The notes under the pieces were generated by a model, which was not told where the DNA came from, ran no database searches, and saw only the letters and a list, made by a program, of their open reading frames with translations. From assembly GCA_964019055.1 (NCBI GenBank), contig OZ025210.1:8575547-8639546 (forward strand): a stretch of 64,000 nucleotides of DNA, in the 5' to 3' direction. Position 1 is the stretch's first letter; every line of letters begins with the position of its first letter. This document shows positions 1-64,000 of this stretch, one piece after another. The translations under genes and the position numbers were made by a program. Source of the DNA: Anthopleura xanthogrammica (lineage: Eukaryota > Cnidaria > Anthozoa > Actiniaria > Actiniidae).

Positions 1-146
1 GACCAAAAAGCACCTTTACTCAGCCAAAACCGAATTTTTTTTCGCCAAAACGTCGTGTTTTTATCTCAAGAGGTATTATCATGAGCAAAAAGTGGGGGTT
101 TCAGCAAACAGGTCACGCCGTAAGCGAAAAACCTGGTTTTGAGAGC

Positions 147-162
147 CAAAATGGCCATTTTG
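147..162. repeat. 16-bp perfect palindrome, A-family specific
   Basis: CAAAATGGCCATTTTG is its own reverse complement. It recurs at the same monomer position in all A units with the G variant. Units with the T variant (ccatttttcag) keep the inner 14 bp, AAAATGGCCATTTT. Family B has agaatggcctttttcag here, which breaks the symmetry. A dimeric DNA-binding protein or a cruciform-prone site is possible, but nothing in the sequence proves either. Confidence 0.85.
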
Positions 163-182
163 CAGTTTTTTGGGCTAAAAAG

Positions 183-193
183 TTTTTTCCCCC
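183..193. repeat. T6C5 pyrimidine tract, indel hotspot of the monomer
   Basis: The gTTTTTTCCCCCag tract is the most length- and phase-variable site of the unit. T5C6 occurs at about 512, 1,499, 3,801 and 22,101. T5C5 occurs near 8,732 and 36,250, T6C4 near 9,060, T7C4 near 9,718 and T7C5 near 17,825. A TCTTTT form occurs near 2,157, 2,486, 10,705 and 37,565. In B the same place varies among T7C5, T6C6 and T5C6. Replication slippage at a homopolymer junction is the simplest cause; long-read homopolymer error is an alternative for singletons. Confidence 0.85.
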
Positions 194-257
194 AGCAAAA
201 CAGTGTTTTGGACACCCAAAATGTGCTTTTCTCGGCCAAAACTTGCGTTTAGCAGTG

Positions 258-390
258 AAAACGTCGTGTTTTGAGCAAAAGAAAATTCTCAGCAAATTTC
301 AAATTTTCTCAGCAAAAAACAGCTTTTTTGACCAAAAAGCACCTTTACTCAGCCAAAACCGAATTTTTTTTCGCCAAAACGTCGTGTTTT
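258..390 (+). repeat. 15-bp direct repeat within the monomer, 118 bp apart
   Basis: AAAACGTCGTGTTTT occurs at 258-272 and again at 376-390 and is repeated in essentially every A unit. Each copy has the inverted arms AAAAC and GTTTT around a five-base centre. In B the two sites have diverged to aaaacggcgtgttta and aaaaagtcgtcttttt, so the identity is specific to A. It is the clearest remaining sign that different parts of the monomer descend from one sub-repeat, or that one copy was converted by the other. Confidence 0.85.
273..318. repeat. 46-bp box identical between satellite families A and B
   Basis: From gagcaaaag (273) to ctcagcaaaaa (318), the A and B consensus monomers are identical over 46 bp, although the rest differ at roughly one base in six. 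The B copy in the unit starting at 57,863 is at 58,054-58,099. The box holds two copies of TTCTCAGCAAA about two helical turns apart and the symmetric AAATTTCAAATTT. It is also where the A patch in the B array rejoins B sequence. Either selection on a binding site or preferential exchange could explain the conservation. Confidence 0.8.
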
Positions 391-511
391 TATCTCAAGA
401 GGTATTATCATGAGCAAAAAGTGGGGGTTTCAGCAAACAGGTCACGCCGTAAGCGAAAAACCTGGTTTTGAGAGCCAAAATGGCCATTTTGCAGTTTTTT
501 GGGCTAAAAAG

Positions 512-14500: not shown

Positions 14501-15207
14501 GAATTTTTTTTCGCCAAAACGTCGTGTTTTTATCTCAAGAGGTATTATCATGAGCAAAAAGTGGGGGTTTCAGCAAACAGGTCACGCCGTAAGCGAAAAA
14601 CCTGGTTTTGAGAGCCAAAATGGCCATTTTGCAGTTTTTTGGGCTAAAACGTTTTTCCCCCCAGCAAAACAGTGTTTTGGACACCCAAAATGTGCTTTTC
14701 TCGGCCAAAACTTGCGTTTAGCAGTGAAAACGTCGTGTTTTGAGCAAAAGAAAATTCTCAGCAAATTTCAAATTTTCTCAGCAAAAAACAGCTTTTTTGG
14801 CCAAAAAGCACCTTTACTCAGCCAAAACCGAATTTTTTTTCGCCAAAACGTCGTGTTTTTATCTCAAGAGGTATTATCATGAGCAAAAAGTGGGGGTTTC
14901 AGCAAACAGGTCACGCCGTAAGCGAAAAACCTGGTTTTGAGAGCCAAAATGGCCATTTTTCAGTTTTTTGGGCTAAAACGTTTTTTCCCCCAGCAAAACA
15001 GTGTTTTGGACACCCAAAATGTGCTTTTCTCGGCCAAAACTTGCGTTTAGCAGTGAAAACGTCGTGTTTTGAGCAAAAGAAAATTCTCAGCAAATTTCAA
15101 ATTTTCTCAGCAAAAAACAGCTTTTTTGACCAAAAAGCACCTTTACTCAGCCAAAACAGAATTTTTTTTCGCCAAAACGTCGTGTTTTTATCTCAAGAGG
15201 TATTATC
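11590..15207 (+). repeat. A array, mixed variants
   Basis: Eleven units of 329 bp. Linked changes include accgCattt near 12,528 and 12,857, and cagCgttttgg then cagCAttttgg near 12,699 and 13,029, which looks like stepwise divergence of neighbouring units. Near 13,196 the C of ttttcgcc is missing, compensated by an extra A in ttttAatctc near 13,215. The units at 14,550 and 14,879 carry gctaaaaCgttt, and ccaaaacAgaa appears near 15,158, immediately before the shortened units. Confidence 0.8.
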
Positions 15208-16077
15208 ATGAGCAAAAAACCTGGTTTTGAGAGCCAAAATGGCCATTTTTCAGTTTTTTGGGCTAAAAAGTTTTTCCCCCCAGCAAAACAGTGTTTTGGA
15301 CACCCAAAATGTGCTTTTCTCGGCCAAAACTTGCGTTTAGCAGTGAAAACGTCGTGTTTTGAGCAAAAGAAAATTCTCAGCAAATTTCAAATTTTCTCAG
15401 CAAAAAACAGCTTTTTTGACCAAAAAGCACCTTTACTCAGCCAAAACCGAATTTTTTTTCGCCAAAACGTCGTGTTTTTATCTCAAGAGGTATTATCATG
15501 AGCAAAAAACCTGGTTTTGAGAGCCAAAATGGCCATTTTTCAGTTTTTTGGGCTAAAACGTTTTTTCCCCCAGCAAAACAGTGTTTTGGACACCCAAAAT
15601 GTGCTTTTCTCGGCCAAAACTTGCGTTTAGCAGTGAAAACGTCGTGTTTTGAGCAAAAGAAAATTCTCAGCAAATTTCAAATTTTCTCAGCAAAAAACAG
15701 CTTTTTTGACCAAAAAGCACCTTTACTCAGCCAAAACAGAATTTTATTTCGCCAAAACGTCGTGTTTTTATCTCAAGAGGTATTATCATGAGCAAAAAAC
15801 CTGGTTTTGAGAGCCAAAATGGCCATTTTTCAGTTTTTTGGGCTAAAAAGTTTTTCCCCCCAGCAAAACAGTGTTTTGGACACCCAAAATGTGCTTTTCT
15901 CGGCCAAAACTTGCGTTTAGCAGTGAAAACGTCGTGTTTTGAGCAAAAGAAAATTCTCAGCAAATTTCAAATTTTCTCAGCAAAAAACAGCTTTTTTGAC
16001 CAAAAAGCACCTTTACTCAGCCAAAACCGAATTTTTTTTCGCCAAAACGTCGTGTTGTTATCTCAAGAGGTATTATC
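15208..16077 (+). repeat. Three consecutive 290-bp short A units
   Basis: Units begin at 15,208, 15,498 and 15,788 and are 290 bp each. They lack 39 bp between atgagcaaaaa and acctggttt, from one A-run of the first sub-repeat pair to a later one, so the loss is about two sub-repeats and keeps the reading frame. The A-runs at the joint suggest slippage or microhomology-mediated deletion. The three units are not identical: 15,498 has gctaaaaCg and T6C5, while its neighbours have gctaaaaAg and T5C6. The pair pattern of the preceding units is therefore overlaid on a shared deletion. No other short units occur in the window. Confidence 0.95.
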
Positions 16078-57682: not shown

Positions 57683-57700
57683 TCTCGGCGAAAAGGTGCG
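57683..57700 (+). repeat. Satellite A/B junction, in register
   Basis: The unit starting at 57,534 is family A up to tttctcgg (last A-specific base 57,688) and family B from aaaaGGtgcg on (first B-specific bases 57,695-57,696). G at 57,690 matches neither consensus. The next B landmark is at 57,863, 329 bp after the A landmark, so the switch lies within one unit without loss of phase. Homologous exchange or conversion between related monomers is the simplest explanation. Confidence 0.92.
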
Positions 57701-57862
57701 TTTAGCAGTGAAAACGGCGTGTTTAGAGCAAAAGAAAATTCTCAGCAAATTTCAAATTTTCTCAGCAAAAAGCACCTTTTTTGACCAAAAAGCACCATTT
57801 GTCAGCCAAAACCCCATTTTTTTTCGCCAAAAAGTCGTCTTTTTATCTCATGGGGTGTTATC

Positions 57863-58190
57863 AGGAGCAAAAAAGTGGTTTTCTCAGCAACAAAGTCATC
57901 CCGTCGGCGAAAAACGTCGTTTTGAGAGCCAGAATGGCCTTTTTCAGTTTTTGGGGCAAAAAGTTTTTTTCCCCCAGAAAACACTGTTTTTGTCACCCCA
58001 AATGTGCTTTCCTCGCCCAAAAGGTGCGTTTAGCAGTGAAAACGGCGTGTTTAGAGCAAAAGAAAATTCTCAGCAAATTTCAAATTTTCTCAGCAAAAAG
58101 CACCTTTTTTGACCAAAAACCACCATTTGTCAGCCAAAACCCCATTTTTTTTCGCCAAAAAGTCGTCTTTTTATCTCATGGGGTGTTATC
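57863..58190 (+). repeat. Reference B monomer
   Basis: Representative 328-bp B unit from AGGAGCAAAAAAGTGG to the base before the next copy. It keeps the sub-repeat plan of A: runs of A preceded by c or g alternate with T-runs at a 20-21 bp period, and 328 bp is again close to 32 helical turns. The A-family palindrome is broken (agaatggccttttt), the ATG is lost, and the 15-bp direct repeat has diverged. The 46-bp shared box is at 58,054-58,099. Confidence 0.9.
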
Positions 58191-60385
58191 AGGAGCAAAA
58201 AAGTGGTTTTCTCAGCAACAAAGTCATCCCGTCGGCGAAAAACGTCGTTTTGAGAGCCAGAATGGCCTTTTTCAGTTTTTGGGGCAAAAAGTTTTTTTCC
58301 CCCAGAAAACACTGTTTTTGTCACCCCAAATGTGCTTTCCTCGCCCAAAAGGTGCGTTTAGCAGTGAAAACGGCGTGTTTAGAGCAAAAGAAAATTCTCA
58401 GCAAATTTCAAATTTTCTCAGCAAAAAGCACCTTTTTTGACCAAAAAGCACCATTTGTCAGCCAAAACCCCATTTTTTTTCGCCAAAAAGTCGTCTTTTT
58501 ATCTCATGGGGTGTTATCAGGAGCAAAAAAGTGGTTTTCTCAGCAACAAAGTCATCCCGTCGGCGAAAAACGTCGTTTTGAGAGCCAGAATGGGTTTTTT
58601 TCAGTTTTTGGGGCAAAAAGTTTTTTTCCCCCAGAAAACACTGTTTTTGTCACCCCAAATGTGCTTTCCTCGCCCAAAAGGTGCGTTTAGCAGTGAAAAC
58701 GGCGTGTTTAGAGCAAAAGAAAATTCTCAGCAAATTTCAAATTTTCTCAGCAAAAAGCACCTTTTTTGACCAAAAAGCACCATTTGTCAGCCAAAACCCC
58801 ATTTTTTTTCGCCAAAAAGTCGTCTTTTTATCTCATGGGGTGTTATCAGGAGCAAAAAAGTGGTTTTCTTAGCAACAAAGTCATCCCGTCGGCGAAAAAC
58901 GTCGTTTTGAGAGCCAGAATGGCCTTTTTCAGTTTTTGGGGCAAAAAGTTTTTTCCCCCCAGAAAACACTGTTTTTGTCACCCCAAATGTGCTTTCCTCG
59001 CCCAAAAGGTGCGTTTAGCAGTGAAAACGGCGTGTTTAGAGCAAAAGAAAATTCTCAGCAAATTTCAAATTTTCTCAGCAAAAAGCACCTTTTTTGACCA
59101 AAAAGCACCATTTGTCAGCCAAAACCCCATTTTTTTTCGCCAAAAAGTCGTCTTTTTATCTCATGGGGTGTTATCAGGAGCAAAAAAGTGGTTTTCTCAG
59201 CAACAAAGTCATCCCGTCGGCGAAAAACGTCGTTTTGAGAGCCAGAATGGCCTTTTTCAGTTTTTGGGGCAAAAAGTTTTTTCCCCCCAGAAAACACTGT
59301 TTTTGTCACCCCAAATGTGCTTTCCTCGCCCAAAAGGTGCGTTTAGCAGTGAAAACGGCGTGTTTAGAGCAAAAGAAAATTCTCAGCAAATTTCAAATTT
59401 TCTCAGCAAAAAGCACCTTTTTTGACCAAAAAGCACCATTTGTCAGCCAAAACCCCATTTTTTTTCGCCAAAAAGTCGTCTTTTTATCTCATGGGGTGTT
59501 ATCAGGAGCAAAAAAGTGGTTTTCTCAGCAACAAAGTCATCCCGTCGGCGAAAAACGTCGTTTTGAGAGCCAGAATGGCCTTTTTCAGTTTTTGGGGCAA
59601 AAAGTTTTTCCCCCCAGAAAACACTGTTTTTGTCACCCCAAATGTGCTTTCCTCGCCCAAAAGGTGCGTTTAGCAGTGAAAACGGCGTGTTTAGAGCAAA
59701 AGAAAATTCTCAGCAAATTTCAAATTTTCTCAGCAAAAAGCACCTTTTTTGACCAAAAAGCACCATTTGTCAGCCAAAACCCCATTTTTTTTCGCCAAAA
59801 AGTCGTCTTTTTATCTCATGGGGTGTTATCAGGAGCAAAAAAAGTGGTTTTCTCAGCAACAAAGTCATCCCGTCGGCGAAAAACGTCGTTTTGAGAGCCA
59901 GAATGGCCTTTTTCAGTTTTTGGGGCAAAAAGTTTTTTTCCCCCAGAAAACACTGTTTTTGTCACCCCAAATGTGCTTTCCTCGCCCAAAAGGTGCGTTT
60001 AGCAGTGAAAACGGCGTGTTTAGAGCAAAAGAAAATTCTCAGCAAATTTCAAATTTTCTCAGCAAAAAGCACCTTTTTTGACCAAAAAGCACCATTTGTC
60101 AGCCAAAACCCCATTTTTTTTCGCCAAAAAGTCGTCTTTTTATCTCATGGGGTGTTATCAGGAGCAAAAAAGTGGTTTTCTCAGCAACAAAGTCATCCCG
60201 TCGGCGAAAAACGTCGTTTTGAGAGCCAGAATAGCCTTTTTCAGTTTTTGGGGCAAAAAGTTTTTTCCCCCCAGAAAACACTGTTTTTGTCACCCCAAAT
60301 GTGCTTTCCTCGCCCAAAAGGTGCGTTTAGCAGTGAAAACAGCGTGTTTAGAGAAAAAGAAAATTCTCAGCAAATTTCAAATTTT

Positions 60386-60515
60386 CCCCCAGCAAAACAG
60401 TGTTTTGGACACCCAAAATGTGCTTTTCTCGGCCAAAACTTGCGTTTAGCAGTGAAAACGTCGTGTTTTGAGCAAAAGAAAATTCTCAGCAAATTTCAAA
60501 TTTTCTCAGCAAAAA
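60386..60515 (+). repeat. A-family patch inside the B array
   Basis: After a normal B stretch ending gcaaatttcaaatttt, the sequence jumps to A-type cccccagcaaaacag and stays A-type (ggacacccaaaatg, cttttctcggcc, acgtcgtgttttgag) through 60,469. It returns to B (aaaaagcacc) somewhere in the box shared by both families, 60,470-60,515. The word gaaaattctcagcaaat is thus present twice, at 60,359 and 60,478, and the unit is 119 bp longer than normal. The entry joint is out of register, at T-runs. Two private changes (aaaacAgcg and gagAaaaag) lie just upstream. This is one template switch or unequal exchange with an A array. Confidence 0.93.
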
Positions 60516-63500
60516 GCACCTTTTTTGACCAAAAAGCACCATTTGTCAGCCAAAACCCCATTTTTTTTCGCCAAAAAGTCGTCTTTTTATCTCATGGGGT
60601 GTTATCAGGAGCAAAAAAGTGGTTTTCTCAGCAACAAAGTCATCCCGTCGGCGAAAAACGTCGTTTTGAGAGCCAGAATGGCCTTTTTCAGTTTTTGGGG
60701 CAAAAAGTTTTTCCCCCCAGAAAACACTGTTTTTGTCACCCCAAATGTGCTTTCCTCGCCCAAAAGGTGCGTTTAGCAGTGAAAACGGCGTGTTTAGAGC
60801 AAAAGAAAATTCTCAGCAAATTTCAAATTTTCTCAGCAAAAAGCACCTTTTTTGACCAAAAAGCACCATTTGTCAGCCAAAACCCCATTTTTTTTCGCCA
60901 AAAAGTCGTCTTTTTATCTCATGGGGTGTTATCAGGAGCAAAAAAGTGGTTTTCTCAGCAACAAAGTCATCCCGTCGGCGAAAAACGTCGTTTTGAGAGC
61001 CAGAATGGCCTTTTTCAGTTTTTGGGGCAAAAAGTTTTTTCCCCCCAGAAAACACTGTTTTTGTCACCCCAAATGTGCTTTCCTCGCCCAAAAGGTGCGT
61101 TTAGCAGTGAAAACGGCGTGTTTAGAGCAAAATAAAAATTCTCAGCAAATTTCAAATTTTCTCAGCAAAAAGCACCTTTTTTGACCAAAAAGCACCATTT
61201 GTCAGCCAAAACCCCATTTTTTTTCGCCAAAAAGTCGTCTTTTTATCTCATGGGGTGTTATCAGGAGCAAAAAAGTGGTTTTCTCAGCAACAAAGTCATC
61301 CCGTCGGCGAAAAACGTCGTTTTGAGAGCCAGAATGGCCTTTTTCAGTTTTTGGGGCAAAAAGTTTTTTCCCCCCAGAAAACACTGTTTTTGTCACCCCA
61401 AATGTGCTTTCCTCGCCCAAAAGGTGCGTTTAGCAGTGAAAACGGCGTGTTTAGAGCAAAAGAAAATTCTCAGCAAATTTCAAATTTTCTCAGCAAAAAG
61501 CACCTTTTTTGACCAAAAAGCACCATTTGTCAGCCAAAACCCCATTTTTTTTCGCCAAAAAGTCGTCTTTTTATCTCATGGGGTGTTATCAGGAGCAAAA
61601 AAGTGGTTTTCTCAGCAACAAAGTCATCCCGTCGGCGAAAAACGTCGTTTTGAGAGCCAGAATGGCCTTTTTCAGTTTTTGGGGCAAAAAGTTTTTTCCC
61701 CCCAGAAAACACTGTTTTTGTCACCCCAAATGTGCTTTCCTCGCCCAAAAGGTGCGTTTAGCAGTGAAAACGGCGTGTTTAGAGCAAAAGAAAATTCTCA
61801 GCAAATTTCAAATTTTCTCAGCAAAAAGCACCTTTTTTGACCAAAAAGCACCATTTGTCAGCCAAAACCCCATTTTTTTCGCCAAAAAGTCGTCTTTTTA
61901 TCTCATGGGGTGTTATCAGGAGCAAAAAAGTGGTTTTCTCAGCAACAAAGTCATCACGTCGGCGAAAAACGTCGTTTTGAGAGCCAGAATGGCCTTTTTC
62001 AGTTTTTGGGGCAAAAAGTTTTTTCCCCCCAGAAAACACTGTTTTTGTCACCCCAAATGTGCTTTCCTCGCCCAAAAGGTGCGTTTAGCAGTGAAAACGG
62101 CGTGTTTAGAGCAAAAGAAAATTCTCAGCAAATTTCAAATTTTCTCAGCAAAAAGCACCTTTTTTGACCAAAAAGCACCATTTGTCAGCCAAAACCCCAT
62201 TTTTTTTCGCCAAAAAGTCGTCTTTTTATCTCATGGGGTGTTATCAGGAGCAAAAAAGTGGTTTTCTCAGCAACAAAGTCATCCCGTCGGCGAAAAACGT
62301 CGTTTTGAGAGCCAGAATGGCCTTTTTCAGTTTTTGGGGCAAAAAGTTTTTTCCCCCCAGAAAACACTGTTTTTGTCACCCCAAATGTGCTTTCCTCGCC
62401 CAAAAGGTGCGTTTAGCAGTGAAAACGGCGTGTTTAGAGCAAAAGAAAATTCTCAGCAAATTTCAAATTTTCTCAGCAAAAAGCACCTTTTTTGACCAAA
62501 AAGCACCATTTGTCAGCCAAAACCCCATTTTTTTTCGCCAAAAAGTCGTCTTTTTATCTCATGGGGTGTTATCAGGAGCAAAAAAGTGGTTTTCTCAGCA
62601 ACAAAGTCATCCCGTCGGCGAAAAACGTCGTTTTGAGAGCCAGAATGGCCTTTTTCAGTTTTTGGGGCAAAAAGTTTTTTCCCCCCAGAAAACACTGTTT
62701 TTGTCACCCCAAATGTGCTTTCCTCGCCCAAAAGGTGCGTTTAGCAGTGAAAACGGCGTGTTTAGAGCAAAAGAAAATTCTCAGCAAATTTCAAATTTTC
62801 TCAGCAAAAAGCACCTTTTTTGACCAAAAAGCACCATTTGTCAGCCAAAACCCCATTTTTTTTCGCCAAAAAGTCGTCTTTTTATCTCATGGGGTGTTAT
62901 CAGGAGCAAAAAAGTGGTTTTCTCAGCAACAAAGTCATCCCGTCGGCGAAAAACGTCGTTTTGAGAGCCAGAATGGCCTTTTTCAGTTTTTGGGGCAAAA
63001 AGTTTTTTCCCCCCAGAAAACACTGTTTTTGTCACCCCAAATGTGCTTTCCTCGCCCAAAAGGTGCGTTTAGCAGTGAAAACGGCGTGTTTAGAGCAAAA
63101 GAAAATTCTCAGCAAATTTCAAATTTTCTCAGCAAAAAGCACCTTTTTTGACCAAAAAGCACCATTTGTCAGCCAAAACCCCATTTTTTTTCGCCAAAAA
63201 GTCGTCTTTTTATCTCATGGGATGTTATCAGGAGCAAAAAAGTGGTTTTCTCAGCAACAAAGTCATCCCGTCGGCGAAAAACGTCGTTTTGAGAGCCAGA
63301 ATGGCCTTTTTCAGTTTTTGGGGCAAAAAGTTTTTTCCCCCCAGAAAACACTGTTTTTGTCACCCCAAATGTGCTTTCCTCGCCCAAAAGGTGCGTTTAG
63401 CAGTGAAAACGGCGTGTTTAGAGCAAAAGAAAATTCTCAGCAAATTTCAAATTTTCTCAGCAAAAAGCACCTTTTTTGACCAAAAAGCACCATTTGTCAG

Positions 63501-64000
63501 CCAAAACCCCATTTTTTTTCGCCAAAAAGTCGTCTTTTTATCTCATGGGGTGTTATCAGGAGCAAAAAAGTGGTTTTCTCAGCAACAAAGTCATCCCGTC
63601 GGCGAAAAACGTCGTTTTGAGAGCCAGAATGGCCTTTTTCAGTTTTTGGGGCAAAAAGTTTTTTCCCCCCAGAAAACACTGTTTTTGTCACCCCAAATGT
63701 GCTTTCCTCGCCCAAAAGGTGCGTTTAGCAGTGAAAACGGCGTGTTTAGAGCAAAAGAAAATTCTCAGCAAATTTCAAATTTTCTCAGCAAAAAGCACCT
63801 TTTTTTTCACCAAAAAGCACCATTTGTCAGCCAAAACCCCATTTTTTTTCGCCAAAAAGTCGTCTTTTTATCTCATGGGGTGTTATCAGGAGCAAAAAAG
63901 TGGTTTTCTCAGCAACAAAGTCATCCCGTCGGCGAAAAACGTCGTTTTGAGAGCCAGAATGGCCTTTTTCAGTTTTTGGGGCAAAAAGTTTTTTCCCCCC

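What the first reader, a model, noticed from the sequence alone, without database searches (positions are those of the whole stretch)
81..409. Monomer is a fossil 16-mer of a ~20.6-bp dyad-symmetric unit
Seen directly: A-runs start at 16 nearly even offsets, each followed about 10 bp later by a T-run, as (g/c)CAAAA-N5-TTTT. A 329-bp satellite with a complete, readable internal sub-repeat ladder records how it was built: 20-21 bp unit, then a 16-mer monomer, then dimer to 13-mer higher-order repeats. Because each sub-unit is an imperfect inverted repeat, both strands look alike.
Basis: seen in the sequence. Interest (0 to 1): 0.75.

Follow-up and report, generated by a model that had tools for sequence, protein, structure and literature searches.

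The report
Major satellite built from 20-bp units
An abundant chromosome repeat of about 320-330 letters, present in tens of thousands of copies, was itself assembled from sixteen copies of a 20-letter unit that still survives as separate small repeat arrays in the same genome, so the steps by which such a repeat was built can be read directly.

Summary
The sub-repeat is real and the fossil reading holds, with corrections. Monomer 81-409 has an autocorrelation peak at lag 20 (0 of 2000 dinucleotide shuffles reach it). The unit is 20 bp, not 20.6: the monomer is 16 units plus a ~10-bp half-unit (161-170). A 20-bp profile trained only on a separate array (C5, about 9.0 Mb) recognises the monomer beyond shuffles that keep every A/T run in place (0 of 300; 0 of 200). 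Other stages exist in this genome: a 12-copy 94% array of the unit on C3 and a 317-bp 16-mer without the half-unit on C2 and C6. Length variants are still mostly whole units (7 of 8 counted events). One monomer 17-mer has 41,455 exact hits. Not supported: dyad symmetry of the unit beyond its A/T runs; strand equivalence; strong higher-order repeats in this window. Added: the DNA is predicted to be strongly curved; whether curvature is maintained is open. Satellites built this way are known.

The parts
81..409 (+). One A-family monomer, 329 bp: 16 units of about 20 bp plus a half-unit
82..160 (+). Units 1-4 (starts 82, 101, 121, 142)
161..170 (+). ~10-bp half-unit; a 9-10 column gap at this place in the C2, C6 and edge (D) monomers, so most simply an insertion in the 328/329-bp lineage
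171..271 (+). Units 5-9 (starts 171, 192, 212, 232, 252)
272..288 (+). Unit 10, shortened to 17 bp
289..389 (+). Units 11-15 (starts 289, 309, 329, 349, 370); in B-family relatives two deletion sites and one duplication of exactly 20 bp fall in the stretch corresponding to about 309-348
390..410 (+). Unit 16, degenerate here, still recognisable in the edge monomer D and in C2
1..57690 (+). Homogeneous A array (329 bp; about 2.4 differences per monomer from consensus)
   Evidence: right end read by eye
15049..15918 (+). Three successive 290-bp monomers lacking 39 bp (about two units)
57690..64000 (+). B-family array (328 bp, 85.6% identical to A)
   Evidence: left end read by eye
60386..60480 (+). 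A-like patch inside B at a 119-bp spacing (about six units); the same 119-bp spacing occurs at the other sampled A/B edge in L014
   Evidence: patch limits read by eye

Best explanation
A 20-bp minisatellite (consensus on the monomer strand TCAGCAAAAAAGTCATTTTA) lies scattered in this animal genome. A stretch of about sixteen diverged units was amplified as a new ~320-bp repeat, most simply once (inferred from shared unit order). That 16-mer became a major satellite: a 317-bp form on C2 and C6, and, with a 10-bp half-unit more, the 328/329-bp forms on C5 and C45 (and, by signature, C1). Unequal exchange or slippage between neighbouring units still adds and removes whole 20-bp units (the length variants are shown; the mechanism is inferred). 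The A/T runs every ~10 bp give intrinsically curved DNA (predicted), which would fix the rotational setting of nucleosomes in what is most likely (peri)centromeric heterochromatin (inferred from abundance and mid-chromosome position on C5; no chromatin data).
For: Lag-20 periodicity, 0 of 2000 shuffles. A profile trained only on L021+L029 scores A and B above run-preserving shuffles (0 of 300 each; 0 of 200 each), far better forward than reverse. Graded score in bits/bp: three controls 0.02-0.09, A 0.38, B 0.43, A-like edge copy 0.44, divergent edge copies 0.47-0.63, short inverted array in L016 0.81, a stretch of L029 outside the training range (same array) 0.905. Mean similarity of 14 of the 17 decomposed pieces 0.54 against 0.457 in run-preserving shuffles, 0 of 3000. 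Two-unit pattern: 11 hits (7 in one C3 array, 2 on C19, 1 each on C20 and C4), reversed control 0; 12-copy 94% array in L040. The 317-bp satellite decomposes into the same units in the same order; A against C2 scores 223 in register and at most 82 at rotations of 50 bp or more. Counted length events: 7 of 8 within 1 bp of a multiple of 20. Exact 20-bp duplication and deletions seen base by base. 41,455, 35,830 and 8,796 exact hits for the shared, 329-type and 317-type signatures, reversed controls 0.
Against: Using only letters outside A/T runs and without gaps, lag 20 in A alone is modest (z 2.7; 16 of 2000 shuffles reach it) and second to lag 60; the maximum over all lags is unremarkable (419 of 2000 shuffles reach it; B 580, D 10). 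Length events were counted as sites, so copies may share one event, and a 31-bp duplication and a 4-bp insertion do not fit. The register used came from the profile. The order of steps rests on parsimony; D is a relative of the 317-bp family (84%), not an ancestor. No kinetochore or nucleosome data.
Confidence: 0.87

Rival explanations
1. No common descent: the periodicity is only selection or mutation bias for A/T runs at the helical repeat (curved DNA), and the letters between runs are unrelated.
For: Weak/strong base periodicity is 9.97 bp; run centres are phased (R 0.66 at 9.9 bp; null maximum 0.45, sd 0.09); the monomer is predicted to be far more curved than shuffles; the strict ungapped non-run test is weak for A.
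Against: Letters between runs match an independent 20-bp array in register and in one orientation and each other; length changes come mostly in 20-bp steps; separate 20-bp arrays exist.
Confidence: 0.04
2. Reverse order: the ~320-bp monomer came first and the 20-bp arrays are later amplifications of one of its sub-units.
For: Small arrays can arise from pieces of satellites; the cleanest 20-bp array (L040, 94%) looks young.
Against: The monomer's own units are related to each other, so a 20-bp repeat preceded it; the one array tested for it, L021, does not carry the monomer's unit order.
Confidence: 0.08
3. The 329-bp and 317-bp satellites became 16-mers independently from the same 20-bp arrays.
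For: Other arrays form longer repeats of their own (342 and 687 bp in L021 and L029; 167-293 bp in L046).
Against: A and C2 align unit by unit along 316 columns at 73%, and the in-register score far exceeds that of distant registers.
Confidence: 0.04

Closest known systems
Mouse, tilapia and sparid centromeric satellites built from a nine-nucleotide unit (review PMC5615363, one passage seen; that mouse is the classical hierarchical case is recalled)
   Different: Here the unit is 20 bp, survives as separate arrays in the same genome, and a sister 16-mer is also present
Alligator and caiman satellites of 41 and 60 bp with ~20-bp subunits (PMC10900743, passages seen)
   Same: 20-bp unit as ancestor of longer repeats; relatives of 23-24 bp still found
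   Different: 2-3 such units per repeat in the 41- and 60-bp examples seen; here 16
Primate 171-bp to 343-bp satellite and higher-order repeats (PMC4053949, passages seen)
   Same: A multimer becomes the new monomer
   Different: No short sub-unit ladder in the passages seen; higher-order structure is weak in this window
Curved satellite DNAs in general (PMC8122249, passages seen)
   Same: Curvature and dyad features are said to occur in various satellites
   Different: Here the curvature is already implied by the ancestral unit (16 copies of the consensus: 0.567)

Membership tests
Hierarchically built satellite DNA | Internal periodicity beyond chance | tested here: met
   0 of 2000 shuffles
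Hierarchically built satellite DNA | Sub-units homologous outside the low-complexity runs | tested here: met
   weaker in the ungapped test
Hierarchically built satellite DNA | Shorter relatives of the unit present | tested here: met
Centromeric satellite | Abundant tandem arrays at one central region per chromosome | tested here: inconclusive
   41,455 exact hits. On C5, sampled arrays lie at about 8.45-8.65 and 9.20-9.34 of 16.47 Mb. Place lists are cut, so other contigs were seen only in part: C1, C2, C6, C45, and two to three B-type hits on C3 and C4
Centromeric satellite | CENP-A nucleosomes on the repeat | not testable with these tools
   no chromatin data
Higher-order-repeat satellite | Multi-monomer units more alike than single monomers | tested here: inconclusive
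   Weak in the window; TRF gives 964- and 635-bp periods in L010 and L011, where monomers of 328/327 and 308 bp mix, and 594 bp in L045
Dyad-symmetric satellite | Inverted symmetry of the unit beyond its A/T runs | tested here: not met
   4482 of 5000 shuffles as good; whole monomer slightly above dinucleotide shuffles (17 of 500 reach it)

The most novel reading that the evidence does not exclude
Helical phase, not sequence, is what is being kept: the units of A have fallen to 65% identity with the 20-bp consensus while predicted curvature has stayed high, above that of the C5 20-bp arrays, and all 8 counted length changes, including the 31-bp duplication, as well as the half-unit, lie within 1 bp of a multiple of 10, so the satellite is selected or preferentially amplified as a curved nucleosome track. 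(Odds lowered from 0.3 to 0.25 on re-reading: one other unit array, L046, is predicted to be even more curved, and B's curvature fits milder neutral decay.)
Probability: 0.25. Interest if true: 0.65.

Novelty: new member of a known kind. Interest (0 to 1): 0.48.

Why it matters
How large satellites begin is usually inferred from eroded traces. Here unit arrays, a 16-mer, two sister monomers differing by a half-unit, and gain and loss of single units coexist in one assembly, so the order and rates of the steps, and whether curvature is maintained, can be measured.

Tried and rejected
Dyad-symmetric unit: rejected, explained by the A/T runs. Purifying selection on A/T runs at single sites: runs defined in one sequence look conserved (A-B 6.5% against 16.0%; A-D 9.9% against 33.3%), but with runs defined in either sequence the difference vanishes or reverses (A-B 12.2% against 11.8%; A-D 20.5% against 26.3%; B-D 23.9% against 19.6%), and the polymorphism comparison is not significant (p 0.20); claim dropped. 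D as ancestor: dropped when it proved to belong with the 317-bp family. Rfam scan of L038, window, L036 and L031: 0 matches at gathering scores. Species: not identified. C5 ends in TTAGGG repeats, and a retroelement frame in L032 has 89 relatives at E <= 1e-30, the named ones from Branchiostoma, Paramuricea, Pinctada, Mytilus, Nematostella and Caenorhabditis, so an invertebrate animal is likely, no more. Papers: the listings showed no paper that I recognised as describing this satellite; with the species unknown I do not claim that it is unpublished.

Limits of the curvature argument: the wedge-model angles are recalled, not from a call. The simulations start from D, which is not the ancestor. 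For A, 0-1 of 300 simulations at equal rates with 38 or 75 substitutions are as curved, but 26 of 300 with 38 substitutions and run sites changing at a quarter of the rate; for B, 27 of 300 at equal rates with 38 substitutions. One divergent copy (L016 1882-2203) has lost curvature (0.79), and L046, an array of the unit on C10, is more curved than A (0.627).

Full report
Setting. The window is G000:C5:8575547-8639546 in an unnamed 290-Mb, 125-contig assembly. It is one tandem array: 329-bp A monomers to about 57.7 kb, then 328-bp B monomers, 85.6% identical to A.

Observation. Lag 20 stands out (0.459, z 7.35) with echoes at 40 and 60; 0 of 2000 dinucleotide shuffles reach it. Decomposition gives 16 units plus a half-unit at 161-170; 9 of 18 unit steps are exactly 20 bp and 16 of 18 within 19-21, so 20.6 bp is an average that hides an insertion. 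The literal motif is present 3 times, a looser one 11 times.

Descent or phasing? A/T runs spaced by the helical turn could mimic a sub-repeat, so I used shuffles that keep all runs of three or more A or T in place. In C5 at 9.00 Mb I found an array of a 20-bp unit (L021), seen also in L029 and from base 864 of L039. A profile trained on L021 and L029 only scores A and B above 300 of 300 such shuffles each, and with softened weights above 200 of 200 each. Reversed, A falls well below its reversed null and B about one standard deviation below. Three control stretches score like their shuffles (168, 31 and 194 of 200 shuffles as good). Fourteen of the 17 pieces of A, three ill-formed ones left out, are more alike than in any of 3000 run-preserving shuffles, though the register came from the profile. 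The strictest, ungapped test is weaker: lag 20 is reached by 16 of 2000 shuffles for A, 3 of 2000 for B, 0 of 2000 for D, and over all lags the maximum is unremarkable for A and B (419 and 580 of 2000; D 10).

Series. The unit score rises from A through B and divergent edge copies to a short inverted array beside the edge and to L029. A two-unit pattern with up to 3 mismatches hits 11 times, 7 of them in one C3 array and the rest on C19, C20 and C4; its reversed control hits 0 times. L040 on C3 holds that 12-copy, 94% array. C2 and C6 carry a 317-bp satellite that decomposes into the same units in the same order, without the half-unit. A against C2 scores 223 in register and at most 82 at rotations of 50 bp or more; 320-bp windows of L021 against A reach at most -3. 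The simplest reading is that the 16-mer formed once, before the two families split. Exact-hit counts: shared 17-mer 41,455; B variant 500; 329-type signature 35,830; 317-type signature 8,796; reversed controls 0. Only the first 100 places of each are listed, so the spread over contigs is known in part; A-type signatures were seen on C1 too, and a few B-variant hits on C3 and C4. At about 329 bp each the shared hits would span roughly 13.6 Mb, near 5% of the assembly (arithmetic). I did not compare it with other repeats of the genome.

Still active. I examined 521 monomers from the window and 12 array loci (L001-L008 and L037 were not used) and the odd spacings between them (31, 119 twice, 427, 883). 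Counted as sites: deletions of 20 (three sites), a 20-bp duplication, a 39-bp deletion, the 119-bp junction, the 99-bp remainder of 427, and a 31-bp duplication; 7 of 8 lie within 1 bp of a multiple of 20, 8 of 8 within 1 bp of a multiple of 10. Left out: the 883 spacing at the array edge in L023, one 4-bp insertion, four replacements with a net change of 0-1 bp, and indels of 1-3 bp. Alignments show an exact 20-bp duplication and 20-bp deletions, one of them between repeated sequence of adjacent units. In the C6 sample successive anchors are 297-299 bp apart (4 of 4) where C2 has 316-318 (6 of 6), seen in the alignment as a gap of 20 columns, with a 2-column gap in C2.

Curvature. With a recalled wedge model the end-to-end/contour ratio over 120 bp is 0.686 for A against 0.927 for shuffles (0 of 60 as low; a control stretch 46 of 60). 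290 stretches from ten loci outside the satellite average 0.941 (minimum 0.793), and 142 stretches of the L021 and L029 arrays average 0.797 (minimum 0.697), so A is more curved than all of these. Six monomers, A to C6, range from 0.674 to 0.730, but one divergent copy is at 0.79 and the L046 array on C10, at 0.627, is more curved than A. Simulated decay from D at 75 substitutions leaves 0.857 on average, 0 of 300 as curved as A; with slower change in A/T runs, fewer substitutions, or B as the target the excess shrinks or vanishes. Site-level conservation of the runs did not survive the fairer definition. Maintenance of curvature is suggested, not shown.

Verdict. The fossil reading is right in substance. 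Satellites of this kind are known; what is unusual, as far as I know, is that several stages are still present side by side. A centromeric role is inference from abundance and position.

Noticed in passing
L014 near 2321 and window near 60329: The same 119-bp monomer spacing occurs at both sampled edges of the A block within B, as if the A block was inserted with, or copied, one junction.
   Followed up: partly
L020 2166-9733 and L030 4559-4998: A 40-bp repeat array, diverged (74% matches in L020), near the 20-bp arrays; the one stretch tested (L020 3001-3330) does not score as the 20-bp unit.
   Followed up: partly
L038 1-2000 (C5 at 9.37 Mb): A 482-bp tandem repeat, 4.1 copies at 99%, near the satellite; no Rfam match.
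   Followed up: partly
L016 1588-3420: Array edge with monomers in both orientations and an inverted junction at about 3236 into a short 20-bp array.
   Followed up: yes
L039 2-865: A 19-bp A/T-rich array directly abutting the 20-bp array.
   Followed up: no
L046 (C10 at 3.193 Mb): Array of the 20-bp unit with its own longer repeats of 167-293 bp and 4-bp insertions in some units; the most curved stretch predicted among those tested.
   Followed up: partly
L032 1865-4999: Open retroelement frame of 1045 codons just outside the satellite region; best relative 88% identical over 82% of it.
   Followed up: partly
L036 4833-5000: C5 ends in 28 copies of TTAGGG, preceded by a ~179-bp subterminal repeat.
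   Followed up: no
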